From Sipunculus nudus (taxonomy: Eukaryota > Annelida > Sipuncula > Golfingiida > Sipunculidae): DNA of 64,000 bases. Shown one piece after another: positions 12,204 to 60,510 of the stretch (position 1 is its first letter; every line of letters begins with the position of its first letter). The stretch is from positions 64,922,019 to 64,986,018 of the forward strand of contig CM049306.1 of the NCBI GenBank assembly GCA_026874595.1, in the 5' to 3' direction. The translations under genes and the position numbers were made by a program. The notes under the pieces are model-generated. The model was not told the DNA's origin, searched no databases, and worked only from the letters and a program-made list of their open reading frames with translations.

Positions 12204-12600
12204 TTTTAAGCTCAGCTGACTGTAAGTCAACTGAGGTATAGGAATGGCGCCTGTCCGTTGTCCGTCTGGACGTCCTGGAGTCCAGCAGTCTGTTAGCAGG
12301 GCACAAATCATAATGGCTGGATCTAGAAACATCTGAGTGAAGATCCAGGGAGGTCAATAAAAAATCTAATAAGAAACCTGAAATTAGGTCACTGCGACCT
12401 ATATCCTTTGAGCTATGGGGCTTGAAAGTACCCCCCAGAATAGTAAAAAATTTGATAAAACCCCCCCAATATCTTGATAATTAATGCATGGTTTGTTGTG
12501 AATCTTGCCTTGAATATTGACCATGACTAGTTTTGTCAGTTCCTGAAACGTGGTGCCGCCACCTGTATTTAACAAATATTTTTCTATTTATTTACTATAA
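12204..12600 (+). mobile_element. Family A 5' fragment, short-period subtype
   Basis: Diverged 5' end TTTTAAGCTCAGCTGACTGT, then GTCCGTTGTCCGTCTGG and one unit of the 337-bp type (GGGCACAAATCATAATGG, TTTGAGCTATGGGG, CCACCTGTATTT). No 3' end of its own: the match passes into family B sequence between about 12600 and 12640. Confidence 0.5.
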
Positions 12601-13587
12601 AATGACAACAATCATGTCAGTTTCTCAGCTGTGATTACATCTGTCATGCGTCGTGCGTCGTGCGTCATCTGTACATTAACCATAGCTATCTCAAAAACGG
12701 CAGGAGCTAGCATCACCAAATTTTTTTGCAAATAATCAGTCATTCAAAAAACTATATAGGATTTTATTTATTTTTTTTCTAACTGCATTATCTTAGATTT
12801 TATAGGGAAAAAGCTAAAAAAGCTTTAAAAATCTTCTTCTGCGAAATTGTCCAGCCAAATTGTCCAATATTTTACAGAAATGATCCCTGGAACAATCTCT
12901 CTCAAGTTTGTTCGAATGTTTCCAGTTTGGAGATTTTTGGCCGAGTTACAGGAAGTTGAACTTTGTTTACTGTGCAAAAAAGCATATTAAAATTTAAATC
13001 TCAGAAACGACTGGCGCTATCAGCACCAAATTTTATGCCAATGTTGGTCACATAGGTCATATCTGAAATTGAGGTATTGGTGGCGCCACCAGCATCTGCC
13101 TTTTTTGTACGGGGTCATCAGTGCCTGTATCACACTGAGGGCTAGAAAAACTTCTTCTCTGAAACCATATGGCCAAAATGTTTAATATTGCACAGAAATG
13201 ATCCTAGGGTAGAGCTTTCTGAAGTTTGTTCAAATCGTCTCTTTTCAGTGACTTTTGGCTAAGTTATGGGAGGCTGAATTTAGTCATATGCCATAACAGC
13301 CCATTTTAGCACAGTGGCTACAAAGATCTTCTTCTCACAAAACCACTGGGCCAAATTCTTAAATCTCACACAATATTTATCCTCAGATGTTGATAATTCA
13401 AGTTTGTTTAAATGGTTTTGGTTCAGTGCTTTTTGGCTAAGTTACGGGAAGCTGAACTTAGCCAGTTTGCTGTATCTTCCTATATGAGTTAAAAAAAAAA
13501 AAACCTGCAAAAACGTTTTTAGCTCAGCTGACTGAAAGTCATCTGAGCTATAGCGATCACTCTTTGTCCGTCGTCCGTCTGTCTGTC

Positions 13588-13618
<31 letters not shown>

Positions 13619-13950
13619 TAACCAGGCACAAATCGTCACCGCTAGAACTGGAATCTTCTTACTTGACATCCTGGGAGGTCCATGAAAAATCTCCTTGGAA
13701 ACCAGAAATTAGGTTTCTGTTACCCATATCCTTTGAGCTATGGGGCCCCAAAGTACCCCCCCGAGAAGTCCAAAATTTCATACAAAAACTTCAATATCTC
13801 ATTAACTACTTGACTGATGGTCATGATTTTTGGCATACATATTGATCATGAGAGGTTCCATCAGTTCCTGAAGACTGGTGGCACCACCTGTATTTTTCGA
13901 TTTTTTACGAATTTTTTTCTCTATTTTTGAGACCTTTAAAAATGTGAACA

Positions 13951-15640
13951 TCTGTTAACAAGGCACAAATCGTAATGACTGGACTTAGAATCTTCATTCT
14001 CGACACACTGAGAGACCTATGAAAAGTCTCCATGGAAACCAGAAATTAGGTCTCTGTTACCCATATCCTTCCAGCTATGGGGCCCCAAACTACCCCCCAG
14101 AAAAGTAAAAAATTTCAAACAAAAACTTCAATATCTCATTAAATACTTGACTGATGGTCATGATTTTTGTCATACATATTGATCATGAGATGTTCCATCA
14201 CTTCCTGCAGACTGGTGGCACCACCTGTATTGTTCAATTTTTTACGAATTTTTTTCTCTATTTTTGAGACCTTTCAAAATGTAAACATCTGTTAACAAGG
14301 CACAAATCGTAAAGACTGGACCTAGAATCTTCATTCTTGACACACTGAGAGACCTATGAAAAGTCTCTATGGAAACCAGAAATTAGGTCTCTGTTACCTA
14401 TATCCTTCGAGCTATGGAGCCCCAAAGTACCCCCAAGAAAAGTAAAAAATTTCATACAAAAACTTCAATATCTCCTTAACTACTTGACTGATGGTCATGA
14501 TTTGTGGCATAACTATTGATCATGAGATGTGTCATCACTTCCTGCAGACTGGTGGTGCCACCTTTATTGTTCGATTTTTTACGATTTTTTCCTCTATTTT
14601 TGAGACCTTTAAGGATGCTGTCATCTGTTAGCATGGCACAAATCGTAACGACTGGACCTAGAATCTTCATTCTTGACACACTGAGAGGTCCATGAAAAAT
14701 ATTCTTGGAAACCAGAAATTAGGTCTCTGTTAACCATATCCTTCGAGCTATGGGGCCCCAAAGTACCCCCCCCCCAGTAGTCAAAAATTTCATACAAAAA
14801 CTTCAATATCTCAATAACTACATCACTGATGGTCATGATTTTTGGCATACATATTGATTATGAAATGTTCCATCAGTTCCTGCAGACTTGTGGCCCCACC
14901 TGTATTGTTTGATTTTTTACGATTTTTTCCTCCATTTTTGAGACCTTAAAGGATGCTGTCATCTGTTAATGTGGCACAAATCATAACGACTGGACCTAGA
15001 ATCTTCATTCTCGACACACTGAGAGACCTATGAAAAGTCTCCATGGAAACCAAAATAAGGTCTCTGTTACCCATATTCTTCGAGCTATGGAGCCCTAAAG
15101 TACCCCCAAGAATAATGGAAAATTTGATAAAAACAAACTGCAACATCTCAATAACTACAACACTGATGGTCATGATTTTTGTCATACATATTGATCATGA
15201 GATGTTCCATCACTTCCTGCAGACTGGTGGAGCCACCTGTATTTTTCGATTTTTTACAAATTTTTTTCTCTATTTTTGAGACCTTTAAAAATGTGAACAT
15301 GTGTTAACAAGGCACAAATCGTAAAGCCTAGACCTAGAATCTTAATTCTTGATACACTGAGAGGTCCATGAAAAATCTCCTTGGAAACCAGAATTTAGGT
15401 CTCTGTTACCCATATCCTTCGAGCTATGGGGCCCCAAAGTACCCCCCCAGAAAAGTCAAAAATTTCATACAAAAACTTCAATATCTCAATAACTACTTGA
15501 CTGATGATAATGATTTTTGGCATACATATTGATCATTAGATGTTTCATCACTTCCTGCAGACTGGTGGCGCCACCTATGTTATCTATCAAGAGGGTACAA
15601 ATTGCAACAACTGGACCTAGAAACTTCATTCTTGTCATGC
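13951..15640 (+). repeat. 337-bp tandem units inside family A
   Basis: TCTGTTAACAAGGCACAAAT or a close variant recurs at 13951, 14288, 14624, 14962 and 15299, spacings of 336-338. Each unit ends in a form of CTGGTGGCGCCACCTGTATT. Units differ by scattered substitutions. More diverged, partly shortened units continue to about 17440. Confidence 0.85.
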
Positions 15641-15824
15641 AAGGAGGCCCATGAAGAGTGCCTGTGGAAACTTGAAATTAGGTCTCTGTTACCCATATCC
15701 TTCAAGCTATAGGTCTCTGAAGTATCCCTCAGAATAATGGACAATTTGATACAAAAGCTGAAGTATCTGAACAACTAATACGGAGATCATCATGATTCTT
15801 TGCATGGATATTGACCATTAAGTG

Positions 15825-15856
15825 TTTTTAGCTCAGCTGACTGTAAGTCATCTGAA
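15825..15856 (+). repeat. Internal family A 5' end fragment
   Basis: TTTTTAGCTCAGCTGACTGT then AAGTCATCTGAAG: a family A 5' hairpin inside another A element, followed by mid-unit sequence with no GTCC tract. It looks like a recombination junction, not an independent insertion. Confidence 0.6.
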
Positions 15857-16343
15857 GTATCCCTCAGAATAATGGACATTTTGATACAAAAGCTCAAGTA
15901 TCTAAACAACTATTGCAGTGATCACCATGATTCTTTGCATGGGTATTGATCATGGAATGTGTCATCAGTTTCTGCAGTATGGTGGCGCCACCTGTATTTT
16001 TTTTTATTTTTACGAATTTTTTTCTCTATTTTTGAGACCTCATAAGATGCGGTCATCTGTTATCATGGCACAAATCGTAACAACTGGACCTAGAATCTTC
16101 TCTCTTGACATGCTGAGAGGCCCATGAAAAGTTTCCTTAAAAACTTGAAATTAGGTCTCTGTTACCCATAACCTCTGAGCTATGGGGCTCCGAAGTACCC
16201 CCCAGAATAATGGAAAATTTGATACAAAAGCTCAAGTATCTGAACAATTATTATATTGATCACCATGATTCTTTGCATGGATATTGATCATGAAATGTTT
16301 CATCAGTTTCTGCATTCTGGTGGCTCCACCTGTATTTTTTCAA

Positions 16344-16420
16344 TTTTTAGCTCAGCTGACTGAAAGTCATCTGAGCTGTAGGGATCACCTTTTGTCCGTC
16401 GTCCGTCCGCTATCCAGGTG
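16344..16420 (+). repeat. Second internal family A 5' end
   Basis: TTTTTAGCTCAGCTGACTGA, the second hairpin arm and the GTCC/GTCT tract are all present, followed by standard units. Only one 3' end (17542) exists downstream of several 5' ends, so this is a nested or tandemly joined copy. Confidence 0.65.
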
Positions 16421-18239
16421 TCTGTCTGTTAACAGGGCACAAATCGTAACCGCTAGACCGGGAATCTTCTTACTTGAAATCCTGGGAGGTCTATGGAAAT
16501 TCTCCTTTTAAACCTGAAATTAGGTCACTGTGACCTATATTCTTCGAGCTATGGGGTTCTGAAGTACCCCCCAGAATAATGCAAAATTTAATACAAAAGC
16601 TCAAGTATCTGAACAACTAATGCATTAATCACCATGATTCTTTGCATGGATATTGATCATGGAGTGTTTCATCAATTTCTGGAGATTGGTGGCGCCACCT
16701 ATATTTTTTTATTTTTTACGATTTTTTTTCTCTACTTTTGTGATCTTTAAACATTTGGTCATCTGTAAACAGGGCACAAATCATAATGACTGGACCTAGA
16801 ATCTTCTGTCCTCACCTCCAGGGAAGCCCATAAAAGGTCTACATGGAAACCAGAAATAAGGTCCCTGTTACCCATATTCTGTGAGCCATGGGGCTCTGAA
16901 GTACCCCCCAGAATAAAGATTTGGTCATATATTAACAGGGCACAAATCATAATGACTGTACCTAGAATCTTCTGTCCTCACCTTCAGGGAAGCCCATAAA
17001 AGGTCTACATGGAAACCCGAAATAAGGTCCCTGTTACCCATATCCTTCATGCTCTGGGGCTCCGAAGTACTCCCCAGAATAAAGATTTGGTCATCTGTTA
17101 ACAGAGCACAAATTATAATGACTTGACCTAGAATCTCCTTTCTTGATATGCTGGTAGGCCCCTGAAAAGTCTCCTTGTGCACCTGAAATTACATCTCTGT
17201 TACCCATATCCTTCATCCTATGCGGCTTTGAAATACCCCCCAGAATAAACATTTGGATTTGTTAACAGGGCACAAATCATAATAACTGGACCTAGAATTT
17301 TATTTTTTGACATGCTGGGACACCCCTGAAAAGTCATCTTGTAAACCTTGAAAATAGGTGTCTGTTACCCATATCCTTCATGCTACAGAGCTCCATAGTA
17401 CCCAAATGAATATTGGATGATTTTATACAAAAGGTCAAGTTTGGAAAAAGTATTTCATTCAAATTTGACATTCAGATGATAAAATTACTTTTGTCAATGT
17501 CTTCCTGGTCAGCTGAGCGTCATGACCCCTGGGTCACTTGTTTGACTGATGCCACTGAAGCCAGTTTATTAAATATTTTACAAGAATAATCCCTACAATA
17601 ATTCTTATAATAATTGGCTGAATTATGGAGATTGAATTGAGTTATTTTACCATATATGTTAGCTGTGTTATGCTGTTACATCTAGCCTGGCACCAGTTTA
17701 TTAGCATCTATAACATCATGCCACTAGACATTTAGATTTCGGGTTATCTTTGGTTAATATTGACAAGAAAGTTTTTTTATAAGCTTTTTAAAAAATTTAG
17801 ATTTATCATTTAAGTTATTCATCATACCTGGCAATGTTACAATCATGGATAATCAGCTCTCTGTGGCTATATAAAGACAACTGTATGTGGATTATAAATT
17901 ATTGGTATCCCTACTCAACTTAATTCAAGAATTTGCCATCAATGAGATATATCTGTATTTTAATTTTGCCTTCAGTATGCATCAGTAATAATTTTACATA
18001 TATTCCTGATTTCTTTTTTTTTTACAAAAAGTCAGCTGAAAAGCATTTTGTATTGGGAAAATAAATTTCAAATAAATTTTAAGTAGGGACCACTTTTGTG
18101 TACAGATGGCAGCACTTGGTTTACCATTGGCAGATTGCCAGTGCCTTGATGTTGGCCATTAGCCAAGATGATGTCAGCTCCATAAATAGTTTTGGCACAG
18201 TGCCAGTATTGGAAGAAGTGAAGCCAGGTATAGGTCAAG

Positions 18240-19240: not shown

Positions 19241-20817
19241 TTTTTTAGCTCAGCTGACTATAAGTCATCTGAGCTAAAGTCGTGGTCCATTGTCCATCGT
19301 CTGTCCGTCTGTCGTGCCATCCGTCTGTCCGTCCGTAGATGTGGCAGGTTTTGAAACCGTAAGACCTTGAAATCCAAAATTCGGCATAGTGTTAGATGTC
19401 CCCAAGATCACCTACCAAGCCGAAAACTGGGTCTTTGCGACTTCGTTCCTTTGAGAAATTAAGGAAAAACCTCAATTTTTTATTAAAAACCTATTTTCAC
19501 ACTTCAGGACTGCCTAATATCAAAAACACTCATCTGTTTTTCCTCATATTTACTGTAAATATTCCTGTATATAGTTCCTATGTACATACCAGAAATTAGG
19601 TCTGCATTATATAATTGAAAAAAGTTATGGGCTCAAACAAAATGCATTTTGTAAAAAAACAGGAAAGATATTTGATCACTTAACACAAAACATGTTAAAG
19701 CTTAGGATTTTTTTCCCAGTAATATCACCTTAATTAATCAAAATTAAATTCTACACCCAACATTAGATCAAAATCTGTTAAATTTTTTTAAATATTAGCA
19801 AAAATAAAAAAAAATTGGTACCTTAAATTTTGCCCAACTTTGACCATGGCACTTTTTTTTTCTTGTAAGTACAGTTGATTTAATTTTCACAGCCAGTTAA
19901 CATATGGATTTAATCTGATGAATTTTGAAATTTGATAGTATAAGCTTAAAAAATAGTCTAGCTATTGGAGTTATTTAGAGGCCTTGATGTATTTGTATTT
20001 TCTAGCATCATGAGCCCACTTTTGTTTACTACAACTGTGCCTGGTAATCCAAAAATTAGCATAATGTTAGATGTCCCTAAGATCTCCTTCCAAGCCAAAC
20101 ACTGGGTCTCTGTGACTTTTTTTTTGAGAATTTAAGGAAAACCTCAATTTTTTTTTAAAATCATTTTTACACTTCAGGAATGCCTAATATCAAAACCACT
20201 GATCTGAATTTGATCATTGTAAATATGCATATTCTTCCATACATTTTCTATTTAAATTCCAAAAATTAGGTCAGTATTGCGTAATTTGTTGAACTTATTG
20301 GCCCAGACATAATGCAACTTGAAAAAAAATAAGGAAATATATTAACTCACTCAACATAATAATTCTTGAAGCTAGAGACTTTTTTTCAGGGATATAACTT
20401 CATTTAATCTAGATTCCATTGTACACCGAAAATTATATCTGAATTTTGCAATTTTTTCAAGTTATTAGCATAAATATAAAATCAGTACCTTAAATTTGCC
20501 CAACTTTGGCCACAGCACGTTTTTTTTCCAGTATGTACTGTGGATTTTATTTTCACAGCATGTACACACAAGGATTTAATCTGTTAAAATCTTAAATTTA
20601 AATAAAAGCTCAAAAATAAGGCTTATGATTGATTTTTTGTGGAGGCTCTTGTTGTATTCCCTTACATTGTCAAGCAGCCCACTTAGGGGTCACTGTAGGT
20701 CATTCAGTATTGCTCTCTGTGCCCAAGGTGTTGTTATGTAATCCCATCACTCATGCAAGCCCTCTCTCTTTGTTGAGCTTATTCAGGGTGTCTGCAGTTA
20801 ATACCACAGGGAGTCTT

Positions 20818-20875
<58 letters not shown>

Positions 20876-21643
20876 CCCCCCCCCCCCCCCACCACCACAC
20901 CCAATTCTGTTCACAGACCTGTACTATAAACAAGATGAATCTTATAATTTCACATTTTTCAGCAACCAGCAGTAACAACAGAGACTCCTCCCCCACCTAC
21001 CCCTTCAAAACACAGGACTCATAAACAAGATGAATCTTAATGAATGATGAATTAATGTAAATTAATTCTTTTTGTTGAGACTTGTAAAATTTTATTTTTT
21101 TTTAGATAGAAATGTTCAAGAATTGAGTTCTAACATTCAAATGTGATAAAATATTATGATCTAACATAAGTGCTAATTGACTAGATTTAAGAAGATATAA
21201 ATACTTTGTAGCATTTGTATCTCTTAAAGTTGGCCGGGCCTAGGTGTGAATAATACTATTAAACTTAGTTTTAAAATCAGAAATATTGGTCAAACTTTGG
21301 GGGAATAATTTTTAAATCCTATGGCCATATATTTAACTATTGAAAACTTAATTTCTTCACACATTCTTTGTTTATGAAATGTTACTTTCATATAACACTT
21401 ACCGTTGGCCCATTTTTCCCTTGGTGCATCATGAAATGGTTTCAGGCCACAAGTTTATTACACAGTGCATATGTTTTAGCTTATGTCCATTATTCTGTAA
21501 TCTGCAGAGTTTAATTTTAACAGCTCCATTTTCTCTTTGCCTTTGAAATGCTAATATACATAAACCAAAAGAAATAAGAATATTTTGCATTTGCTAATAT
21601 TTTCCAAATTCAGCTGAGCGACGTGACCCATGGGTCCCTTGTT
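19241..21643 (+). mobile_element. Complete family A element, long-period subtype
   Basis: Both ends intact: TTTTTTAGCTCAGCTGACTA with its second arm, and TCAGCTGAGCG, GACCCATGGGTC, CCCTTGTT. The body is a GTCC tract, two units of about 675 bp (TTAGATGTCCCC at 19391 and 20061), a CT/poly-C slot and an AT-rich tail. Its position inside a T run of family C defines both boundaries well. Non-coding. Confidence 0.7.
20816..20890. repeat. CT microsatellite followed by poly-C
   Basis: A CT run to about 20871 followed by a C run at 20874-20890, in the fixed slot of the long-period family A subtype. Confidence 0.9.
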
Positions 21644-26572: not shown

Positions 26573-28240
26573 TTAGGGCCCCGCTTGAAAAGCGGGTGCC
26601 CTACAGATATCGACCTGTCCGTCTGTCTGTCTGTCCGTCCGTCCATCTGTCCGTCCCTTTGTCCGTCTGTCCGTCCACAAATTCTTTTCCGGATGATAAC
26701 TCCAGTTAGGATTGACGGATTGAGCTCAAACCTGAAATATATATTAACCATCAATTATGGAGAGATCCCTATCAATTTTGGGGTCCGAAGGTGAAAGGTC
26801 AAAAAAGTTATTCATGGTTTGGTGTTAAATTTTAGGACCCTCTTTCAGCAGGGCAGAAATCATAATTGTAACCATAATTGTTTGTTCCACCTTAACAGTA
26901 GGACAGGTCCTCATGTCAACAGCAACGAGGCATGATATATGGTCATAGTCAGCCATTTTTCTGTAAGTTATACGGTAAAAACCATTATTGAAAACCTAGT
27001 AAGGTTGCACTCTCTTAGCAAATATGCATGCAAAAGGACACACATTGTTAACACAATAACTCGTAAAAAGTATTTCATATAAGGTCCCTAGACTCATAGC
27101 AGTGATGGACCTTTTGATGGGCTACATCATGTTTGAAGATGGGTGAACTTGATGGATTTTCAAGGTCACAGGTGATAATGCTAAAATGATGTTAACCAAA
27201 TAGCTCGCAAACAATTTGACTAACACTCACTGAACTTACACCATTAATGTTTGTTATGAAGGGAATAGGTCAAGTTCGAAGATGGATGACCTTGACAGAG
27301 ACAATAATTCTCAAATGATGTTAATGCAATAACTCAGAAAGAATTTGATGAACAATCAAATTCGTTTCTGCATAATAACTCCCCTAACATATGATGGATA
27401 GGATTCAAACATAAGATTATCACCCATGGCCTAAGGGAAATGCTTTTTGATATTGGGGTCAGAAGGAAAAAAAATAAGTAATACACAGTTTGGTGTTCAG
27501 TTGCTGGTGTCTCCTTCAGCAGGCCAGAAATGGATGAATCTTTTTCGAGTCACTTGTGTACAGCGGCATTACATTTTCACAGCATATTTTGTACAGACTA
27601 TTTGAAGATTCCCCAGAAAAGGATACACTGGCCCAATGCACCACAGTGGTTCTCATTTAGACCATGTTTGGACAAATCTATCTCCACTTCCAACATCTCA
27701 AGGAATTTTGGAGCTATTATAGTGGCCATCAACAAATTTACATGGATATTCATATGTAGCCTTTCTACACATCACAGCGCATCTGTAGACCCAATCCCAA
27801 GAACAGCTGAATCTCAGTTCAAGAGAATGACCATTTTATCACTACAAACCAGCAGCTGACTCTCTCTATTACTACAAGGTTCATGTACAGACTCAAGCCT
27901 CACATATAATAAGGCCAATTCAACATAGAAATACTGGAAAAATATTTGACACAGCCCAGTCAAGACTTAAACCAAGAATAACTGGCACAGGTAATGAAGA
28001 ATTACAGAAACTAAAAATGCATGCAGTTCTTTTATATCATTATTTTGATAGCTTTGAACATTTCACTTTTCCATATCTTTTCTTCCAGTTTATCCATGTC
28101 AGCTGTTCTTTACAGGTTCTTTAATTTTCAAATATCACTCTATCAGCCCATGCTACCAAAATACACCAAATTCACAGTACTTCAATTTATAATGACTGCA
28201 TCTTTTGCGGGGCCCTTACTGACCTGTCAGTTTTCTAGTT
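26573..28240 (+). mobile_element. Complete family F element
   Basis: The 5' end TTAGGGCCCCGCTT folds back on AAGCGGGTGCCCT (26590-26602). A GTCC/GTCT tract follows (26609-26682). Near the 3' end GCGGGGCCCT (28207-28216) is the exact inverse of the 5' arm AGGGCCCCGC, followed by the hairpin ACTGACCTGTCAGT (28218-28231) and TTTCTAGTT. The body has degenerate units with GTGTTAATGCAATAACTC-like words and AAGGTCA motifs, then a foreign-looking block (27510-28200). It has the same plan as families A, C, D and E but no shared terminal sequence. Confidence 0.65.
27510..28200 (+). other. Non-repeat block inside family F
   Basis: This part does not resemble F's own units or any other family in the window. 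It contains a plus-strand open frame at 27530-27859 (109 codons, starting MDESFSSHLCTAALHFHSIF) and a second at 28021-28251. Neither shows a known motif; the first has mixed, protein-like composition. It may be captured genomic DNA, as rolling-circle elements often carry, or diverged element sequence. Confidence 0.3.
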
Positions 28241-34600: not shown

Positions 34601-34602
34601 TT

Positions 34603-42570: not shown

Positions 42571-42862
42571 CTATAGAAGTTAATACATTTGAATATTTTG
42601 AATAGTCTTGTGAAATATAACGTTAACATATTTACCTCCTTTGTGGTCAAGGAATTCTTATCAGGCACATATGCATTATGACCATTGTATAATTCATAAA
42701 TAATTTAATTTATGGATAACAGTTAAATCAGTTACAATTAATTATATTTTGTCAAATTTACACTGCATATATTAAGCAAGTTATAAGTCTTGGCTGTATA
42801 ATATGTTTGAAATATTTGAGCATTGAAATAAGGGGTATAATTGCTCTGCGGAGGCTCATCTA

Positions 42863-44211
42863 ATTGTATCCGCCAAAACAGAGTTTTGTGGATACTATGT
42901 TTTCAGCTGCACGCCGCAGCCGCCGCCGCGTAGGTGTCCGGAGAACTCCTCAGTAACCGCTGGGCAGAATTTTACGAAACCTGGGATTATGTTCGGGTCA
43001 CATGTGAACTGCTGCGCCCCGATTATGTTTTGACCTCTGACCTTTCCTCTGCCCTCTGCGTCCATTTGTGCGTCTGTTTCCACACATAAACCCACATATC
43101 TCGGGAACCGTTTGACGGATCAGGAAAATTTTTTTGCACAAATGTAGCCCTTGGAGAGCTTTATAACATACACAAGAAATGGTGGCGCCACCTGCAACCA
43201 TGTTTGCACAGTGTCCATCTGTTCGTCTGCCTTGGGTTAAAATCACTCATATCTCTGCAGTGATTTGACTAATTCACCTGAAATTCGGCATGCGTATACA
43301 TCCTGGATTGCATGTGTATAGATCTCACATAGCTCTTTATCATACGCAAAACTGGTGGCTCCACCTGCAGCCATTTTGCACAGCTCCCGTCTGTTTGTTT
43401 GCCATGGGATAAAATCACTCATATCTCTGCAGTGATTTGACTAATTCACCTGAAATTAGGCATGCGTATACATCCTGGATAGCTTTCCTGATTTTGTGAC
43501 AGGTGGTGCCACCTACATCACGTTTACGCTGCAGACATCCAAGCTCATATCTCGGGAACCGTTTGACCAATTGGGCCAAAATTTTGCATGTGTATAGATC
43601 TCACATAGCTCTTTATCATACGCAAAACTGGTGGCGCCACCTGCAGCCATTTTTGCACAGCTCCCGTCTGTTTGTCTGCCATGGGATAAAATCACTCATA
43701 TCTCGGCAGTGGTTTCACATATCTGCCTAAAATTTTGCAGGTTTATACATCCCCGACAGCTCTCTTGATTTTATGACAGGTGGCGCCACCTGCATTCTAG
43801 TTTATGCAGCAGACATCCAAGCTCGGGAACCGTTTGACCGATTGGGCCAAAATTTTGCATGTGTATAGTTCTCACATAGCTCTTTATCATACGCAAAACT
43901 GGTGGCGCATCCTTCAACCATTTTTGCACAGTGTCCATCTGTTTGTCTGCCACGGGCTAAAATCACTCATAAACATATAGTGGTTTGACTTATCTGCCTC
44001 AAATTTTGCATATGTATACAACTTGGATGGCTTTCTGGATTTTGTGGTAGGTGGCACAACCTACATACACCATTTGGCTGCAGACATCCATGCTAATATG
44101 CAACACTTCACTCTATTTCCCCTTGCCACTCAATCCATGCCTCACTTCACCCGTTCCACTCTGATTTAGGCGGATACACGTAGTCGCTTGTCGACTACCC
44201 GTATTCTAGTT
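42863..44211 (+). mobile_element. Complete family C element
   Basis: The 5' end TTGTATCCGCCAAAAC pairs with GTTTTGTGGATAC in a stem-loop. The 3' end has GGCGGATACA (inverse of TGTATCCGCC), the perfect hairpin GTAGTCGCTTGTCGACTAC and CCGTATTCTAGTT. The interior has about four units with GGTGGCGCCACC palindromes. At 1349 bp this is the best type copy of family C. T flanks both ends. Confidence 0.7.
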
Positions 44212-44905: not shown

Positions 44906-45667
44906 CTGGTCATTCTCTCGGTTTTACATAAAAATGTTTGTACCTGAGGACTGGATTGCATGTGTTCTCTGATTTTGGTGGGAAAATGAAGTTGCTCAGG
45001 GAGAAGTGGGGCCTAGCGATCGTGGGGCTGCAGCAATCAAGTTATATATATATAAGGTTTCTAATAACCATATGAAAATGGTCTTATTTTTCTCGAAAAA
45101 AAAAGGTCTTACAAAGTCTTAAAAAGGTCTTACCTTTTTAAATGGAAAAGGCGCAAGAACCCTGTTATCATACGCAAAACTGGTGGCGCCACCTGCAACC
45201 ATTTTTGCACAGCATCTGTCTGTTTGTCTGTTAACACCTCACGGTAATGCGTCAGCGAATATGTCATCGTATCAAATTTACCGCTGCACTTTTTTGCAGA
45301 TATTCTGTGAACTCCAGTAAAGGATGTTATCCAAACATTGCCATGAAAATGTTTGTACCTGAGGACTGGATTGCACTTGTTCTTTGATTTTGGTGGGGAA
45401 AATGAATTTGCTCAGGGAGAAGTGGGGCCTGGCGATCGTGGGGCTGCAGCAATAAAGTTACAACATTACCGTTCTACGACTAAACGCTGTTTATAGATAT
45501 GGTAAACTTCATTGACAGATTTATGGATAAAAAGATGCATGCTTTGCCATGTATAATATAAGCCTACGGGAATGGACTCCGATCGTAACAACATATCTGA
45601 ATAAGTATATGGCAACAGCCGGCAAAGGAGTAGAGAATATACGGGTGTGTAAATGAAGGCCTATTTA

Positions 45668-47157
45668 TTGTATCCCAAGACAAAGTTGGGATACTATGGT
45701 TTCATGACAGTCCAGCCGCCTCCGCCGCAGAAAAACCTTGTGAGCGGGATTACTCAAAAAATATTTTACTGATCTCTTTCAAACTTTGCATTTGTGAAGA
45801 GATATATAAGGGGATGAAGCCTATTTAAAATGGGGTCATGACCTATGCTAGGAGAGTGACCTTGACCTTGAATAGGTCCATTTTTGCTGAAAATAACACA
45901 AATCCTTAAATATCTCAAGTAAGCTTGCATGGACTGGTCCAAAAATCAAGGTGACCGAAGATCTTGGATAGCCTTGTGTTGGAAACTGGTGGCACCACCT
46001 ATTATCCTTTTCTTGTTTTTACGCCTATTAATACCCCCATAATTGCCACTTGACAGTACTGTAAGCATTATAAGTCAAAAACTAATGGACAGATTTCTTT
46101 CATATTATGCACATGTAGAGATATTGGTTATGGGATAAGGTCTATTTACATTTGGGTCATGACCTTTACCATTGACCTTGACCATGACGTTTTATGTGTC
46201 CATATTAGTGAAAATCACACACCTCTTATGATATCTCCAGTGTTGATAGCCATATGGATTTCAAACGTAACTTATGTATGGCCCACCACTAAAGTAAGAA
46301 TCCTATAGGTTCTAGGGTCTTGAGGTCAGAGGTCAAGGTCACTGGACTCGCATCTTAAAAGATACTGTGGATGCATTTTAAGCCAAACTTTCATCCCACG
46401 TCTTCCATCTTGAATATATAGCCTACTTGCCAATAGTGGATGATCCATATCAAGTTTGGGGTCACAAGGTCAAAGGTCAAGGCCACAGGAGCTGTCTGTC
46501 AAAAAAATTAGTTTCTGGATGATAATTCCTGCTTTTAATGATGTATTGATTTCAAAATTTGACTTATATATGTCCCATTAAAAAAGCAAGACTCCAAATG
46601 ATTTTGGGGTCATGAGGTAAAAGGTCAAGGTCACAGGACACATCTTTAAAAAGATTGTGGATGCATTTTCAGCCAAACAAATTATCTCAGATCTTTCATC
46701 TTGCACATATAGTCCACCTGCCAAGAGTGGAAGACCCCTATCAATTTTTAGGTCACAAGGTCAAAGGTGAAGGTCACAGGAGCCATCTGTCCAAAAATTA
46801 GTTTCTGGATGATCATTTCTGCTTTTATTGATGTATTGATTTCAAACTTGACTTGTATATGTCCCATTGGAAAAGCAAGACCCCAGTTGATTTTGGGGTC
46901 ATGAGGTCAAAGGTCAAGGTCACAATACACATCTTTAAAAAGATTGTGGATGCATTTTCATCCAAACATTTCATCTCAGACTTTTCATCTTGCACATAAA
47001 GTTCACCTGCCAAGAGAGGAAGACCCCTATCAATTTTGAGGTCACAAGGTCAAAGGTGAAGGTCACAGGAGCTAAAATGGGGGCCTATTCTTAAAGGGGG
47101 GAGTGGTACTATGTCTGGGGATACTCTGGCACCGGCGGTGCCAAGAAATGTCTAGTT
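45668..47157 (+). mobile_element. Complete family D element
   Basis: The 5' end GTATCCCAA (45670-45678) pairs with TTGGGATAC (45686-45694). Near the 3' end GGGGATAC (47117-47124) inverts the 5' arm, followed by the hairpin TGGCACCGGCGGTGCCA (47127-47143) and AAGAAATGTCTAGTT. Body units (about 300 bp) carry AGGTCAAAGGTCAAGGTCAC words, and one GGTGGCACCACC palindrome is at about 45989. Inserted in the duplicated CAGGGTT element. Confidence 0.65.
46440..47065 (+). promoter_or_regulatory. Repeated AGGTCAAAGGTCA (DR1-type) sites
   Basis: Direct repeats of AGGTCA with one-base spacing occur near 46466 and 46905, with one-base variants near 46613, 46751 and 47040. DR1 spacing is the known binding form of RXR/HNF4/PPAR-type nuclear receptors. 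Whether these are bound here is unknown; the repeat may simply belong to the element. Confidence 0.4.
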
Positions 47158-49190: not shown

Positions 49191-51250
49191 TTTTTAGCGA
49201 ACCTGTGACCTTATGCGATGGTGTGGCGTCGTCCGGCGTCCAGCGTTCGTCGGCTGTGGTCCGTCGTATGACGTTAACCCATACTATCTTGAAAATGGCA
49301 AGAGTTAGCATCAAGAAATGTTCTGCAAAAAATTAGTCATCTAAAAAACTCTATCCGATTTTTCTTATTTTTTGGCTAACTGCATTTTCTTAGATTTTAT
49401 AGAGAAAAAGCTAAAAAAAACTTTAAAAATCTTCTTCTCTGAAACTGTTCACCCAAATTGTCCAATATTTCACAGAAATGATCCATGGAACAATCTCTCT
49501 TAAGTTTGTTCGAATGGTTTAAGTTTGGTGATTTTTGGGCGAGTTACAACAAGTTGAACTTAGTCATCTGTCCAAAAAAGCATACTAAAATTACAATCTT
49601 AGAAATGGCTGGAGCTGTCATCACCAAATTTTATGCCAATGTTGGTCACATGAGTCATGTCTGAAATTCAGGTATTGGTGGCGCCACCTGCATCGACCTT
49701 TTTTGAATGGGGGTCATCAGTGCCCGTATCATACTGACAGCTAGAAAAAACTTCTTCTTTGAAACCATTTTGGCAAATTGTTTAATATCCCACAGAAATG
49801 ATCCTAGGGTAGTGCTTTCTGAAGTTTTTTCAAATGGTCTCAGTTCAGTGACTTTTGGCTGAGTTATGGGAAGCTGAATTTAGTCATATGCCATAACAGC
49901 CCATTTTAGCTCAGTTGCTACAAAGATCTTCTTCTCAAAAACCACTGGGCCAAATTCTTAAATCTCACACATTAATTATCCTTAGATGTTGATAATTCAA
50001 GTTTGTTCAAATGGTTTTGGTTCAGTGATTTTTGGGAGTCATTGGAAGCTTAACTTAGCCATTTTGCTTTATTTTCCAATATGAGTTATAAACCTGCAAA
50101 ATGTTTTTTGAGTGACGCCACTGAGGCCAATTTGTTTAATATTTTACAAGAATAATCCCCTGAATAATTCTTATAATAATTGTCCTTTATGGTTCCAAAG
50201 AATGAATTTTGGCTGAATAATAAAGATTGAATTGAGTCATTTTACCATTTATGTCAGCTGTGTGAAGCAGATACATCTAGCCTTGAACCAGTTTATCAGC
50301 ATCTGTTACATCATGCCTCCAGACATTTAGATTTCAGGTTATCTTTGGTCAGTATTGACAAGAATGTTTTTTAAAAACTTTTAAAAAATGTAGATTTATG
50401 ATTTTAGAAATTCCTCATGCCAGGTAATGTTTACAATCACAGGTATACGTTAACCATACTATTTCAAAAACGACTGGAGCTAGCATCATGAAATTTAATG
50501 CAAAAAATTAGCCATCTGAAAAAAATCTGCATTTTCTTAGATTTTATAGAGAAAAAGCTAAAAAACCTTTAAAAATCTTCTTCTCTGAAACGGTCAAGCC
50601 AATTTGTTCAATATTTCACAGAAATAATCTTTTATACCATCTCTCTCAAGTTTGTTCAATTGGTTCAAGTTCTGTGAATTTTGCCGAATTACAGGAAGTT
50701 GAACCTAGTCATCTGTCCAAAAAAGCATACTAAAATGACAATCTCAGAAACGGCCAGAGCTATCATCACCAAATTTTATGCCAGTGTTGGTCACATGAGT
50801 CATATATGATAGATAATTCAGGTATTGGTGGCGCCACCTGCATTGACCTTTTTAGCTCAGCTGACTATAAGTCATCTGAGCTATAGTCGTGGTCCATTGT
50901 CCGTCGTCCATCCGTCTGTCTTGCCGTCCGTCCGTATGTCCGTCCGTCCGTCTGTCCGGATGTCCGTCCAAAAGACTGGCACGTTTTGACACCGTTGGAC
51001 CTATGAATCTGAAATTCGGCATACAGTTAGATGTCCCCAAAACCTACTACCATGCCGAAAATTAGGTCAATAGGACTTCGTACCTTCGAGATATTTAGGA
51101 AAAACCTCAATTTTTTATTAGAAATCTATTTTCACACTTCAGGACTGCCTAATATCAAAACCACTCATCTGGTTTCTTCATATTAACCATAAATATTCCT
51201 CTATATAGTTCCTATGTACATGCCAGATATTAAGTCAGTATTATATAATT

Positions 51251-52679
51251 ATGCCCCCGCCACAAAGTGGCCGGGGCATATAGTTTTACCCATGTCCGTC
51301 CTTCCGTCATTCTGAAATCAAACAGTTGTACGGACTTTTTTTCACAATGCCTGCTAAACTTAGAAAATTTCATGAAAAATAGAAATTTTCATGACAAATA
51401 CACATGTACGGACTTTTTATCGCAATGCCTGCAGATATTGGCCTGATTTTTTGTGGGTGGGCAGATAATGACCAGTTACAGATCCAGTTCGCGTTTCGTC
51501 CCGGTTGACCTACTTTTGAACGTTTTGCGCCTCCTTAACTTAGAAAATTTCATGAAAAATAGAAATATTCATGACAGATACACATGTACAGACTTTTTTT
51601 CACAATGCCTACAGATATTGGCCTGATTTTTGGTGTGTGGGCAGATAATGACCAGTTAAGATCGAGTTCGCGTTTCGTCCCGGTTGACCTACTTTTGAAC
51701 ATTTTACGGCTCCTGAACATATAAAATTTCATGAAAAATATGAAATTTCAAGACAAATACACATGTACAGACTCTTTTTCGCAATGCCTGCAGATATTGG
51801 CCTGATTTTTAGTGTGTGGGCAAGTATTGACCAGTTACAGATCTAGTTCTCGTTTCGTCCCACTTGACCTACTTTTGACTGTTTAACGGCTCCTGAAAAT
51901 AGAAAATGTCATGTAAAATATAAATTTTCATGACAAATACACTTGTATAGACTTTTCTTCGCAATACCTGCGGATATTGGCCTGATTTTTGGTGTGTTGG
52001 CAGATTAAGACCAGTTACAGGTCGAGTTCGCGTTTTGTCCCAGTTGACCTACTTTTGACCGTTTGACGGTGCTCTAACATAGAAAATTTCATATAAAAGT
52101 GCACACGTATGGACTTTTTTTGGCAGTGCCTGCAGATACGGGCCTGATTTTTGGTGTGTAGGCAGATAATGACCAGTTACAGATCCAGTTTTTGTTTTGT
52201 CCCAGTTGACCTACTTTTGACCATTTGTCTGCTCCTGAACATAGAAAGTTTCATGAAAAATAGACATTTTCATAACAAATGCTTATGTACTGAATTTTTT
52301 TCCTCAATGCCTGCAGATACCACCCTGATTTTTTGTGTGGTCAGATAATGACAGTTACAAATCGAGTTCGCGTTTCGTCCCTGTTGACCTACTTTTGATT
52401 GTTTTACGGCTCCTAAACATAGAAAATTTCATGAAAGACAGAAATTTTTATGGAAAATGCACATGTAATGACTTTTTTTCATAATGCCTGCATATACTGG
52501 CATGATTTTTGGTGTGTTGCTTGATAATGACCCGTTACAGATTGAGTTTGCATTTTGCCCTTGTTGACCTACTTTTGACCATATGACACCTCCTGAACTT
52601 GAAAAATTTTTCAAAATTTTACAAATGTTTCTAATTTTCCCCAGGCGGGGGCATTCGTGTCGTTCCGACACATCTAGTT
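51251..52679 (+). mobile_element. Complete family E element
   Basis: The 5' end ATGCCCCCGCCAC pairs with GTGGCCGGGGCAT in a stem-loop. Near the 3' end GGCGGGGGCAT (52644-52654) is the exact inverse of ATGCCCCCGCC, followed by the perfect hairpin GTGTCGTTCCGACAC (52657-52671) and ATCTAGTT. The body is about seven units of about 178 bp. The intact target ATATAATTTAAAAAAG is visible in other A copies near 24277 and 32676. Confidence 0.7.
51400..52620 (+). repeat. 178-bp tandem units of family E
   Basis: ACTTTTTTTCGCAATGCCTG-type words start units at about 51411, 51591, 51771, 51949, 52113, 52290 and 52470. Each unit carries GTCCCGGTTGACCTACTTTT and ends with AAAATTTCATGAAAAATAGA. Confidence 0.8.
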
Positions 52680-55600
52680 TAAAAAAGTTATGGGCCCAAA
52701 CATAATAGACTTTGTAAAAAAGTTCAGGAAGATATTTGACTTAAGATCAAAAGTGTTAAAGGTAGGGACTTTTTTTCCAGTTATACAACTTAAAATAATT
52801 AAAATTTAATTGTAAACCAAAAATTAGATCAAAATCTGTTAAATTTTTTTCAATATTGGCAAAAATATAAAATTGGTACCTTAAATTTTGCCCAACTTTG
52901 GCCATGGCACGTTTTTTTCCTGTAAGTACTGTGGATTTAATTTTCATAGCATGTATACATAAGGATTTAATCTGTTAAAATCTGAAATTTGAAAATAAAA
53001 GCTGCAAAATTAGGCTAGTTATTGAATTTTTTTGGAGGCTCTTGTTGTATTCCCTTACATTGCCAAGCAGTCCACTTTGATGACTGTAGGTCATTCAGTG
53101 CACATCTCTATGCTCCCCAGGCTGTTGGCATAATTTTAGATGTCCCCAAAATCTCCTACCATACCGAAAATTGGGTCATTAGGACTTGGTTCCTTCGAGA
53201 TATTAAGGAAAAAAAACTCCGTTTTCCATAAAAAAAGTCATTGTTACACTTCAAGGCTGCCTAATATCAAAACCACTGATCTGTTTTTGATCGTATTTAG
53301 TATTCACATTCTTTCATACATTTTCTATGAACATACCAAAAATTAGGTCAGTATTGGGTATTATTTTGAAGTTATGGGCCAAAACATAATGCATATTTTA
53401 AAAAATCAGGAAATATATTTACTCACCTAACATGAGAATTGCTGAACCTAGAGACTTTTTTTCAGGAATATAACTTTATTTAATCAAGATTCAATTGTTT
53501 ACCCAAAATTAGATCTGAATTTTGCAAATTTTTCAAGTAATTAGAATAAATAAAAAATCAATACCTTAAATTTTGTCCAACTTTGGCACTGTTGATTTAA
53601 TTTTCACAGCATAAATACATAAGGATTTAATCTTTTTAAATCTGAAATTTCAAAGAAATTGATTGGAAAGAATAGCTTTTATTCATGTTTTCATACACCA
53701 TGTCAAGTGTTGTTTACATCTAGCCCACCTAGTAGTACAGCCTTCACTTGCATTATGTAACCCACCCCAGGCAGCTTGCCTTAGGTCAGCCTGGCCACTA
53801 CCAGCAGGCTTCCCCTCTGCCCTGCACTCCCCCCCCCCCCCAGATGGTGCATAAACTAGATGAATGTTATTATTTTCTGTATTTGATTCATTCTTATTCT
53901 AGGCTATGCTACATTTTAGATTTTGTATTGTACCACCAGGGTTACAATGATTAAAGTGTACATTTAATTGTGTCCACAAAGTGGTGTATTGCTATGAAAG
54001 TGTGGATGTTCATCAGATAAGCAATTCCTTACTTCAGAAGAGGAAAAAGTCACCAGGTGTGAAATTGACTATTAATTCCAGTAATAAATTAAAACTGGGA
54101 TAGTAATTAGCACAATGATATTGTTTGTCCCTCATTCAACCAACAGTGTGTATACTTTATTTGAAAAGATGTTTTATTTTATCAAATTTACTTTTATTTT
54201 ATTTTGGTGAATAAAATTAAGCATGTACTGAAAACTCCAATGTGCAAAACTTTTTAATAGTGATTCAAGGAATATTCTTGTAGATGCCATGTTGTGGCAT
54301 TATTTTCTTTTAAATTCAGTTTAAACGTTTATGATTTAAAAATAATAAAATATATGTGTATGCATAATATGACCCAATATGAGCTACACTCTGGATATAT
54401 GATGATTGCAACTTTTGCAACAATCCTAATATTTTAACTTATAGTTTCAGTTTTTTACTCTGTATATATAATGATTGCAACTTTTGCAACAATTCTAATA
54501 TTTTAACTTATATTTTCAGGTTTTTTTATTAACAATTTATAAAACCTGTAAATAAAAAAATGATTCAGATAAAAACTTCTTAATGGATAAAGTGGATATG
54601 CTTAAAAAAATAGGATTATATATAAACTTAAATACATTATTCCCTTGAAAGTGAAATAAAGGTATTAGTCCATTCTGTCCACTTGCCTGTCCATCTGTAA
54701 ATTTTCATATGCATCACAGTATCTCAAAATTTTACTGTTTTTCTTCATGACAGTCTTGTCAGAGTATTAGTTTGCAATCATATATTTAGAACTTTACTAT
54801 AACCAAGTAGGAAGGCCTCTTTCCTCTTAGCTTTTCATATTCTTATGTAAATGAAAAACATTACAATAGAATATTTCTACATCCACCTTCGTGCTGCCCT
54901 CACTTTTCCCTTCTCTGAAGCCCATCCCAAAGTCAGCCTCAGTAAGCGAGAACAAGATGAATCAGATATATTCATACTTTTATATTTTGTATAAATATTC
55001 GTCCATTATGTCAATATTGTGTTATATGTAGACATAGTGGGCATCACAATAATGTACCTTGTCAAGACTAAAGAGATATTGTGTCATACAGTCACAAATT
55101 CATAAATCACTTCATCAGCATAGTTAATCATAACATCATATCTGTCAAATTGAAAGCTTGCAGACTACCATACACTTTAGATCCTGCAACAAATAGCCTT
55201 ATCATCATTCTACTACTGCTTATTACTGCTGTCATTGCATTCATATTTGCTCAAATATATCACAGTTTTCAACCCCTCCTAAATAAATAAAAAATAAACC
55301 ACTATATTTGACTCTATTAAGCCATCAGTCAGGTAATTTCATTCATCATTTACTCACATATTACATTACATACCTTTATAATAGCCCAACATGTCCATGA
55401 TATTCATAAGCTTTATCGACTCGATATAGTATCACAGTGGAGAAACATTTATAGTCCAATCACGATCAGCTGAGCGCCGTGACCCATGGGTCCCTTGTTT
55501 TGTACGGGGGTCGTTGGTCATCTGTATATCAACCCATAATTTCTCAGGAATTGCAGGAGCTACCATCCCCAGATTTTATGCAATTATCTGTCACATATCA

Positions 55601-57687: not shown

Positions 57688-59979
57688 TTTTTAGCTCAGC
57701 TGACTATAAGTCATCTGAGCTATAGTCGTGGTCCATTGTCCGTCGTCCGTCCTTCCGTCCGGATGTCCGTCCGTAAGACTTGCACGTTTCGACACCATTG
57801 GACCTACGAATCTGAAATATGGCATACTGTTAGATGTCCCCAAAATCTCCTTCCATGCCGAAAATTGGGTCAATAGGACTTGGTTCCTTCCAGATATTAA
57901 GGAAAAACCTTAATTTTTTATTAGAAATTTATTTTCACACTTCAGGACTGCCTAATATCAAAACCACTCATCTGGTTTTCTTCATATTTACCATAAATAT
58001 TCCTCTATATAGTTCCTATGTCCATGCCAGAAATTAAGTCAGTATTATTTAATTTAAAAAATCTAGTTTAAAAAAGTTATGGGCCCAAACATAATGGACT
58101 TTGTAAAAAAAATCAGGAAAGATATTTGGTCATTTACGACCAAAAGTGTTAAAGGTAGGGACTTTTTTTCCAGTAATACAAGTTTTATTAATCAAACTAA
58201 ATTGTATACCAAAAATTAGATCAAAATCTTTTAAATTTTTTTAAATATTGGCAAAATATAAAATTGGTACCTTAAATTTTGCCCAACTTTGGCCATGGCA
58301 CGTTTTTTGTTGTAAGTACTGTGGATTTAATATTCATAGCATGTACACATAAGGATTTAATGTGTTAAAATCTGAAATTTGAAAATAAAAGCTGCAAAAT
58401 TAGGCTAGTTATTGAGTTTTTTTGGAGGCTCTTGTTGTATTCCCTTACATTTTCAAGCAGTCCACTTTGGTGACTGTAGGTCATTCAGTGCATATCTCTA
58501 TGCTCCCCAGGCTGTTGGCATAATGTTAGATGTCCCAAAGATCTCATACCAAGCTCAAAACTGGGTCTTTGCAACTTTGTTCCTTTGAGAAATAAAGGAA
58601 AAACCTCAGTTTTTTGTTAAAAACATATTTTCACACTTCAGGACTGCCTAATATCAAAACCACTTATCTGTTTTCCTCATATTTTCCATAAATATTCCTC
58701 TATATAGTTCTTATATACATGCCAGAAATAAGGTCTGTATTATATAATTTAAAAAAGTTATGGGCTCAAACATAATGCATTTTGTAAAAATTCAGAAAAG
58801 ATATTTGATCGCTTAACACAAAACATGTTAAAGCTAAGGACTTTTTTCCTGTAATATAACTTTAATTAATCAAAATTAAATTGTATACCCAAATTAGATC
58901 AAAATCTTTTAATTTTTTTTAAAATGTTAGCAAAAATAAATATTGGTACCTTAAATTTTGTCCAACTTTGGCCATGGCACGTTTTTTTCCTGTAAGTACT
59001 GTGGATTTAATTTTCACAGCATGTGCACATAAGGATTTAATCTGTTAAAATCTGAAATTAGAAAATAAAAGCTGCAAAATTAGGCTAGTAATTGAATTTA
59101 TTTTGGAGGGCTCTTGTTGTATTCCCTTACATTGTCAAGCAGTCCACTTTGGTGACTGTAGGTCATTCTGTGCAGCTCTCTCCACTGAGTTGAGCTTGAT
59201 CAGGCTGTCTGCAGTTAATACCATACCACAGGGAGCCTTTTCTCTGGCGCCCCCCCCCCCCCCCCCCCCCATTCTGTTGACAGACCTGTACTATGAACTA
59301 GATGAATCTTAAAATTAACATTTTTTTCAGCAACAAGCAGTAACAACAGAGACCCCTCACCCCCACCCACCCCTTCAATACACAGGACTAATAAACAAGA
59401 TGAATCTTATAATTTTAATGTTAAATAATTCTTTTTTATGAGACTTGGACAATTTCGATTGTTTTAAAGAAAAAAAATTCAGGAATTTAATCCTAATATT
59501 CAAATGTGATGAAATATTAGGATATAATGTAAGTGCTAACTGACAAGATTTAAGAAGATATAAATACTGTAGCATTTCATTCATATCTCTTAAAGTTGGC
59601 GGGGCCTAGGTGTGAATAACACTGTTAACTTAGTATTAAAATTAGGAATATTGGTCAAACTTTGTGGGATAAATTTTTAACTCATATGGCCATATATTTA
59701 ACTTTTAAAAACTTGATTACCTTTACACATTATTTGTTCATGAAATGTTACTTTTATATAACACTTACCATAGGCCTATTTGTTCTCTTGAAGCGTCACT
59801 AAATGGTTTAGCTCATGTTCATTATTCTAAAATTTACAGAGTTTAATTTTAGCAGGGCCATTTCCTCATAGCTTTTCTAATGATAACATACATGAAAAAC
59901 TAAAAGAAATAAAAATATTTCGCAGTTACTAATTTTTTCCAAAATTCAGCTGAGCGATGTGACCCATGGGTCCCTTGTT
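57688..59979 (+). mobile_element. Complete compact family A element
   Basis: Intact 5' hairpin end, GTCC tract, two long-period units (TTAGATGTCCCC at 57832, TTAGATGTCCCA at 58523), poly-C slot at 59250-59270, AT-rich tail and intact 3' end (TTCAGCTGAGCG, GACCCATGGGTC, CCCTTGTT). With 2292 bp and no nested element this is the best type copy of the long-period subtype. Open frames in it are non-functional. Confidence 0.75.
58061..58069 (+). repeat. Possible family E terminal scar
   Basis: ATCTAGTTT, the exact last bases of family E plus the flanking T, stands between two AATTTAAAAAA-like words at the same A-core position where E is inserted at 51251. Confidence 0.4.
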
Positions 59980-60510
59980 TCTTTAATCCTCCCAGGTTGA
60001 ACCCCTCCTTTTTAGTAAAGCGAGCCAGAGTCATGTGTTTTTCACATTGACTGACCACACACGTGGGTGCCTTTGTCTAATGACAGCACAAACATGCATA
60101 AATCCTTCCGACTGAAAACAAGGTTATTCATATGCACGGAAGTCCTTAAATCAGCTTAATTCTGGGCTTGAGGTGACCACAAAGAAAATCCAGTCTTTGC
60201 CAAAGGCAGTTCGGCTGTTCTTTGGTGATAGCCTCCGCTCATATCAGAAAACACGCAAAAATCACTGAAAAATGATGTGTACATTAAAAATTATTTATTC
60301 TAATATTGGCCATGTCTCTGAGGGAACAATAACCTTTAAAATGTGGTAAAGCACAGTATCATACGCGACGCGGTTTCAGAGAACATTGTGAACACAGGTG
60401 GAATTCCTTTTATAAGTATTAAATTATGTGCACAAAATATATTCAGGTGAAGCAAGTGTGGGGAACTCACTTGAGCAACGTTAGGAAGAATGCAGCAATT
60501 AATGTTCAAT
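59980..60510. other. Unique stretch between two family A elements
   Basis: Not repeat-like within this window and moderately CpG-containing (CATACGCGACGCGG near 60360). Holds the exon-like frame described below. No promoter motif stood out. Confidence 0.35.
60156..60264 (-). CDS. Exon-like minus-strand terminal frame
   Basis: On the minus strand the acceptor CATTTTTCAG is followed by one base and 35 codons: DFCVFSDMSGGYHQRTAELP, then 15 more residues to a TAA. The frame also has an internal ATG (MSGGY). The acceptor has a T-rich run, composition is protein-like, and the other two frames stop early. It could be the last exon of a minus-strand gene to the right, now separated by family A insertions. 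No family recognised. Confidence 0.25.

What the first reader, a model, noticed from the sequence alone, without database searches (positions are those of the whole stretch)
12204..60000. Six unrelated families obey one terminal grammar
Families A, B, C, D, E and F share no terminal sequence, yet each has a 5' arm whose inverse lies near the 3' end, then an independent 3' hairpin, then CTTGTT or CTAGTT. Arms and hairpins: A GCTCAGCTGA with GACCCATGGGTC; B GCGAACCTGTG with AGGCCTGTAGGCCT; C TGTATCCGCC with GTAGTCG/CGACTAC; D GTATCCC with TGGCACC/GGTGCCA; E ATGCCCCCGCC with GTGTCG/CGACAC; F AGGGCCCCGC with ACTGAC/GTCAGT. In A, C, D, E and F the 5' arm also folds locally, so one 5' sequence can pair with either its neighbour or the 3' arm. 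The published Helentron/HINE plan explains the arms and 3' hairpin. The alternative 5' pairing across five families is less familiar and could act as a start/stop switch for rolling-circle replication.
Basis: partly seen in the sequence, partly recalled or inferred. Interest (0 to 1): 0.85.

Follow-up and report, generated by a model that had tools for sequence, protein, structure and literature searches.

The report
Jumping genes facing one way regionally
The six repeat families are rolling-circle jumping genes of a known animal type with the known end structure, but unrelated families in the same stretch of chromosome mostly point the same way, which may mean that insertion follows the direction in which DNA is being copied.

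Summary
All six families have a 5' arm repeated inverted near the 3' end, then a hairpin, then CTTGTT/CTAGTT; in five (not B) the 5' arm also folds locally. They are HINEs, non-autonomous Helentrons, and the local 5' repeat is already published for oyster Cg_HINE and fly DINE-1. The start/stop switch is untested. At least 54,058 3' ends lie in this 1.43 Gb genome.

What I found instead: unrelated families share local orientation. On contig C1, cross-family pairs 5-50 kb apart agree 228 of 228 in the first 3 Mb and 214 of 283 in 3-85 Mb (1,000 rotations: mean 50%, maximum 61.8%); beyond 3 Mb agreement falls to 55-61% at 200-400 kb. T-run asymmetry looks too weak to explain it. My best reading is insertion into single-stranded DNA on one strand of the replication fork, as in bacterial IS200/IS605. 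A signed test at chromosome ends was inconclusive (8 of 13), gene strand was not tested, and no strong control repeat was found, so the cause is inference.

The parts
12204..17542 (+). family A, 5' arm 12210, 337/166-bp central repeats, 3' arm 17509, ends CTTGTT; further A 5' arms at 13522, 15831, 16350 inside, so a stack of A elements
19242..21643 (+). family A HINE inserted in a family C element (5' arm of C at 19131)
   Evidence: diverged empty site at 42911-43045, 75.6% identity
57688..59979 (+). family A HINE, 5' hairpin 57694-57720
32302..36285 (+). family A element, 5' arm 32308; 3' limit inferred from GTCCCTTGTT ending at 36285
50849..55499 (+). family A element, 5' arm 50855, 3' arm 55466, hairpin 55481; family E lies inside
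   Evidence: E flanks match A interiors
29080..31779 (+). family B HINE, 278-bp central repeats; no 5' hairpin
42859..44211 (+). family C HINE, 271/172-bp central repeats, 5' hairpin 42866-42895
45664..47157 (+). family D HINE, 289-bp central repeats, 5' hairpin 45670-45694
51249..52679 (+). family E HINE, 180-bp central repeats, 5' hairpin 51251-51279; empty site in L001 without duplication
26573..28240 (+). family F HINE, 5' hairpin 26575-26602

Best explanation
The six families are non-autonomous Helentrons (HINEs), moved by Rep-helicase-endonuclease proteins of the kind encoded elsewhere in this genome. Their ends follow the published plan; the hairpins most likely serve as single-strand recognition sites for the HUH Rep. 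The transposed single strand is most likely joined to target DNA that is single-stranded on one particular strand, at a T-T step. The best candidate is the lagging-strand template at a replication fork, so an element's 5'-to-3' direction records fork direction at insertion. This would make unrelated families point the same way within a replication domain, with imperfect agreement where forks run in either direction from cell to cell. Shown: end structure, no target duplication at one site, uninterrupted Rep genes, and regional orientation agreement across families on one chromosome. Inferred: the role of the fork, which strand it is, and that these Rep proteins move these families.
For: Cross-family pairs 5-50 kb apart agree 228/228 in C1 0-3 Mb and 214/283 in 3-85 Mb. 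In 3-85 Mb, rotating strand labels within families gives 50% sd 3.4, maximum 61.8% of 1,000; same-family pairs agree 105/134, shuffle maximum 63.4% of 1,000. Beyond 3 Mb cross-family agreement falls to 55% (449/818) and 61% (95/155) at 200-400 kb. In 19 stretches fetched by place inside domains called from the listed ends, 79 of 88 matching 500-bp pieces (of 361) carry the expected orientation. The left end of C1 is one '-' segment to 1.17 Mb (88 sites). GC skew of masked DNA differs with domain sign: +0.018 in '+' loci, -0.028 in '-' loci; 16 of 20 loci usable, Mann-Whitney p 0.04. Bacterial IS200/IS605 transposons show fork-directed orientation (passages of PMC5371812).
Against: The prediction written beforehand (left chromosome ends '-', right ends '+') was met by only 8 of 13 hits from 99 pieces, which is inconclusive. 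Agreement beyond the first 3 Mb is 76%, not near-total. Nine of 88 pieces in the fetched loci point against their domain, including all five in L013 and three of four in L006, which lies inside the first '-' segment. TA skew of masked DNA does not follow domain sign (p 0.68). Runs of 14 T also lean towards the nearest Helentron's strand, 33 of 52 within 50 kb. The scale beyond 3 Mb would also fit gene or gene-cluster orientation, which was not tested. There is no strong non-Helentron control repeat. Only contig C1 could be mapped densely, because listings stop at 100 places. No autonomous element with A-F ends was found around the two Rep genes examined.
Confidence: 0.5

Rival explanations
1. 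Orientation follows transcription: insertion uses the displaced strand of transcribed DNA (R-loops), or selection removes one orientation within genes, so coherent blocks are genes or clusters of same-strand genes.
For: Beyond 3 Mb most of the agreement is lost by 100-200 kb (59% and 58%), a scale compatible with genes; transcription can also give GC skew.
Against: The first 1.17 Mb of C1 is one segment (88 sites), long for genes on one strand. No gene annotation was available, so gene strand was not tested.
Confidence: 0.2
2. Coherence is a by-product of nesting, composite elements, tandem or segmental duplication: elements insert into T-runs of older same-direction Helentrons, or blocks are copied together.
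For: Nesting is common in the window. A and B 3' ends lie exactly 176 bp apart at four of the listed places, so some pairs move as one unit. Runs of 7 or more T outnumber A-runs 77 to 42 in the window.
Against: Pairs under 5 kb were excluded, yet agreement persists at 20-50 kb (101/144 and 29/38 beyond 3 Mb). T-runs in the window favour the T strand only 51-57% for run thresholds 2 to 6. Among the six loci of the first '-' segment (L001-L006), one 64-bp match is all that remains after masking the known families.
Confidence: 0.17
3. One reading: the 5' arm pairs either with its neighbour or with the 3' arm, and this choice starts or stops rolling-circle replication. It concerns the ends and is compatible with the best explanation.
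For: Both pairings exist in five of six families; the local pairing of A and E has one mismatch while the long-range pairing of E is perfect and that of A perfect over its 10 named bases.
Against: Family B lacks the local hairpin yet has 8,684 matching ends, so the hairpin is not required for spread. The arrangement is published, in the passages I read without such a function. No test of competition was possible.
Confidence: 0.2
4. The strand agreement is caused by strand-biased target sequence (T-runs) in host DNA.
For: Elements sit in T-rich sites and runs of 14 T lean the same way, 33 of 52 within 50 kb.
Against: In masked DNA the share of T among T/A runs of 5 or more is 0.51 in '+' domains and 0.555 in '-' domains, opposite to expectation.
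Confidence: 0.06

Closest known systems
Cg_HINE elements of Crassostrea gigas (PMC7492417; passages and section 9 read)
   Same: 5' subTIR with a nearby complementary IR, microsatellite (GTCY-type in several elements), central satellite-like repeats, 3' subTIR, 3' palindrome, T-rich target without duplication, several families with unrelated ends.
   Different: End sequences not compared with ours; that paper reports integration in both orientations (section 9), and I saw no regional orientation analysis in the parts read.
DINE-1 and mite HINE, Helentron superfamily (PMC4067079; passages read)
   Same: SubTIRs, 5' IR or palindromic subTIR, 3' stem loop, T-rich/TT target, no target modification found; autonomous partners with Rep/helicase/endonuclease.
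   Different: There the autonomous partners were linked by sequence identity; here they were not.
IS200/IS605 bacterial transposons (review PMC5371812; passages read)
   Same: Works like: orientation recapitulates replication direction because insertion targets the lagging-strand template.
   Different: Bacterial transposase of another lineage (recalled); here the link to replication is inferred only.

Membership tests
Helentron/HINE | subterminal inverted repeats, 5' near the end and 3' internal to a palindrome | tested here: met
   six of six families
Helentron/HINE | short palindrome near the 3' end | tested here: met
   six of six families
Helentron/HINE | 5' IR complementary to the 5' subTIR (DINE-1 and Cg_HINE; not all HINEs) | tested here: met
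   five of six families fold; B does not
Helentron/HINE | insertion at TT in T-rich DNA without target duplication | tested here: met
   E: empty site in L001 at 93% identity, no duplication beyond the ambiguous TT; A_b: diverged empty site, T-rich. The other six of eight element queries gave no junction-spanning match
Helentron/HINE | autonomous partner with Rep, PIF1 helicase and C-terminal endonuclease sharing the same ends | tested here: inconclusive
   proteins present in uninterrupted frames; A-F ends not found in 13 kb around two of them, apart from two hits to D's 7-base arm
Helentron/HINE | rolling-circle transposition observed | not testable with these tools
   no experiment
IS200/IS605-like fork-directed insertion (mechanism, not membership) | element orientation matches replication direction | tested here: inconclusive
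   regional coherence shown on C1; signed chromosome-end test 8 of 13

The most novel reading that the evidence does not exclude
Eukaryotic rolling-circle transposons insert with an orientation set by replication-fork direction. If so, more than 50,000 Helentron ends form a fossil strand map of germline replication direction, readable from sequence alone in any Helentron-rich genome.
Probability: 0.45. Interest if true: 0.87.

Novelty: new variant of a known kind. Interest (0 to 1): 0.62.

Why it matters
If orientation follows the fork, Helentrons would share the lagging-strand targeting of bacterial IS200/IS605 transposons, which bears on how Helitron-type elements choose targets. It would also let germline replication domains be inferred from assembled genomes of species that cannot be studied in culture. 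The end structure alone is ordinary for bivalve HINEs.

Tried and rejected
Control repeats. A TIR transposon (window about 5.84-8.23 kb and L011; 406 matches, 100 listed) was too rare: neighbours under 200 kb agree 2 of 5, and 2 of 3 copies agree with the nearest listed Helentron. A motif shared by L005 and L007 had 94 matches, often in inverted pairs, and was dropped. No abundant non-Helentron control repeat was found in 244.5 kb, so the control is weak. Runs of 14 T served as a target control.

Chromosome ends. 99 pieces of 500 bp at 50, 100 and 150 kb from 33 ends of 17 chromosomes gave 13 hits: left 3 '-' and 2 '+', right 5 '+' and 3 '-'. Three of the 99 are all N. Counting only strong matches would give a better ratio, but that cut was thought of afterwards and is not used. 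Two F ends within 1 Mb of a right end, not in the written test, are both '+' (C4:97174776, C16:62778279); C1:110813087 is the element already in L079.

Autonomous partner. Around two Rep genes (13 kb each) the only hits were two to D's 7-base arm, one 66-bp match to window 48903-48968 at the edge of the C8 stretch, and one weak hairpin-CTTGTT candidate on C11.

Chance arms or hairpins were rejected (and zero backwards-read controls). Cut-and-paste transposition was rejected for E by its empty site.

Literature. In ten searches of the held open library I saw no report of regionally coherent or fork-directed Helitron/Helentron orientation. For most papers I saw only listings, some cut at 20 rows (73, 38 and 33 papers). 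Passages on orientation in PMC3288121, PMC4289320, PMC4683698 and on orientation or strand in PMC8268682 do not describe it. Subscription papers are not held.

Full report
WHAT IS THERE. The window lies at C1:64922019-64986018 of a 1.43 Gb assembly with 17 chromosome-size contigs. The motifs of the finding are at the stated places. The first 31 nt fold as single-strand DNA in A, C, D, E, F (z -3.8 to -6.7) but not in B. The genome holds 21,208 A, 8,684 B, 14,126 C, 4,948 D, 4,744 E and 348 F 3' ends under the patterns used, 54,058 in all, with zero backwards-read control matches. The patterns required CTWGTT or near it, so copies ending otherwise were not counted.

WHAT IT IS. The anatomy is that of non-autonomous Helentrons (HINEs). 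The oyster Cg_HINE paper (PMC7492417; passages and section 9 read) describes subTIR, a complementary IR 1-12 bp away in the left flank, a microsatellite (GTCY-type in several elements), central satellite-like repeats, 3' subTIR and palindrome, T-rich insertion and no sign of target duplication. The DINE-1/HINE paper (PMC4067079; passages read) describes the same kind of IR for DINE-1. For family E an empty site exists in L001 (93% identity) with no duplication beyond the ambiguous TT. Families are unrelated only at their ends, since B/C and A/B share internal modules, much as some oyster elements share modules.

MACHINERY. Helitron_like_N (PF14214) matches 143 places, several within open frames above 2,200 codons. 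Two examined ORFs (2,235 and 2,250 aa, each scanned in two parts) carry Helitron_like_N, a PIF1 helicase and a C-terminal Exo_endo_phos domain, the Helentron arrangement, plus OTU and DUF6570. In 13 kb around each I found none of the six families' ends, only two hits to D's 7-base arm, a 66-bp match to window 48903-48968 and one weak hairpin-CTTGTT candidate. The partner of A-F is not identified.

THE UNEXPECTED PROPERTY. In the window the 16 five-prime ends that I recognise are all on the + strand (8 A, 3 B, 2 C, 1 each D, E, F). In the first listing, A ends along the first 1.17 Mb of C1 were '-' with one exception, then switched. Listed ends of other families switch at matching places. With all listed C1 sites (A 270; B, C, E 100 each; D 95 of 100 listed; F 18 of 100 listed, the rest being on other contigs), cross-family pairs 5-50 kb apart agree 228/228 in 0-3 Mb, 163/219 in 3-16.6 Mb and 51/64 in 16.6-85 Mb. 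For 3-85 Mb (214/283), rotating labels within families gives 50% sd 3.4, maximum 61.8% in 1,000. Same-family pairs agree 206/219 in 0-3 Mb and 105/134 in 3-85 Mb. Pairs below 5 kb were left out because some A and B ends form composites exactly 176 bp apart. Agreement falls with distance: in 3-16.6 Mb 83% at 5-20 kb, 70% at 20-50, 65% at 50-100, 59% at 100-200, 55% at 200-400 kb; in 0-3 Mb it is still 72-73% at 200-800 kb. An earlier two-state model on 327 sites in 0-16.6 Mb gave a switching scale near 300 kb and minority rates from 0 (E) and 2% (A) to 16% (C). The extra A sites show more mixing beyond 3 Mb than that model implied, so I rely.

FETCHED STRETCHES. Nineteen 9.5-kb stretches were fetched by place inside domains called from the listed ends. 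Of 361 pieces of 500 bp, 88 match the window's repeats and 79 of these carry the domain's orientation. The nine exceptions are all five hits in L013, three of four in L006 and one in L009. Six loci gave no hits. With a library of eight window elements, 60 of 69 best matches follow the domain (A 39/42, B 6/9, C 0/1, D 9/9, E 4/6, F 2/2).

CONTROLS AND RIVALS. Target asymmetry: in masked DNA, T-runs do not follow domain sign, and in the window T-runs favour the T strand only 51-57% for run thresholds 2 to 6, though 77 to 42 for runs of 7 or more, too little for 76-100% agreement unless only long runs are used. Runs of 14 T agree with the nearest Helentron 33 of 52 within 50 kb, a weak lean that may come from T-runs inside Helentrons. 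Duplication: after masking the known families, the six loci of the first '-' segment share one 64-bp match; the remaining matches between loci, apart from a TIR transposon (L011 and window) and a 150-bp motif (L005, L007), I take for further Helentron parts, but did not identify each. A non-Helentron repeat abundant enough for a strong control was not found. Gene strand was not tested.

WHY REPLICATION. HUH transposons join single strands (recalled). In bacteria IS200/IS605 insert into the lagging-strand template, and their orientation recapitulates replication direction (PMC5371812, passages). A fork model predicts cross-family agreement on a sub-megabase scale, imperfect where fork direction varies between cells, and an outward direction at chromosome ends. 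The C1 left end fits, but it set the sign. The written prediction for the other 33 ends gave 8 of 13, not significant. GC skew of masked DNA differs with domain sign (p 0.04), while TA skew does not; transcription could also cause GC skew. If skew polarity is as in mammals (recalled), the element strand would lie on the lagging-strand template.

VERDICT. The reported end grammar is real and already known for HINEs. The regional orientation agreement is, on this evidence, real on C1, and I saw no report of it in ten searches of the held library (mostly listings). Its cause is open; fork-directed insertion is the most likely of the explanations considered.

Noticed in passing
window 5840-8230; L011 about 3.9-5.95 kb: A terminal-inverted-repeat DNA transposon, 406 matches to one of its 40-mers genome-wide, in opposite orientation in the two loci.
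   Followed up: partly
C1:162501/162677, 1947207/1947383, 10457414/10457590, 9809977/9810148: A (CTAGTT variant) and B 3' ends exactly 176 bp apart at four places: apparently a composite element that spread as one unit.
   Followed up: partly
L003, L004, L006, L007, L008, L012: Long minisatellite or satellite arrays, several with strong strand skew, in the first 2.2 Mb of C1; some are open over hundreds of codons.
   Followed up: no
94 places, e.g. C2:70266474/70267565, C9:24462877/24466048: Motif TTGTCCACTCGGACT occurs repeatedly as inverted pairs about 1-6 kb apart, suggesting another terminal-inverted-repeat element.
   Followed up: no
L025, L026: Autonomous Helentron proteins carry an OTU protease domain and DUF6570 upstream of the Rep domain.
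   Followed up: no
C1:0-3 Mb versus the rest of C1: Cross-family orientation agreement is total near the left chromosome end (228/228) but about 76% further in; the reason for the difference is not known.
   Followed up: partly
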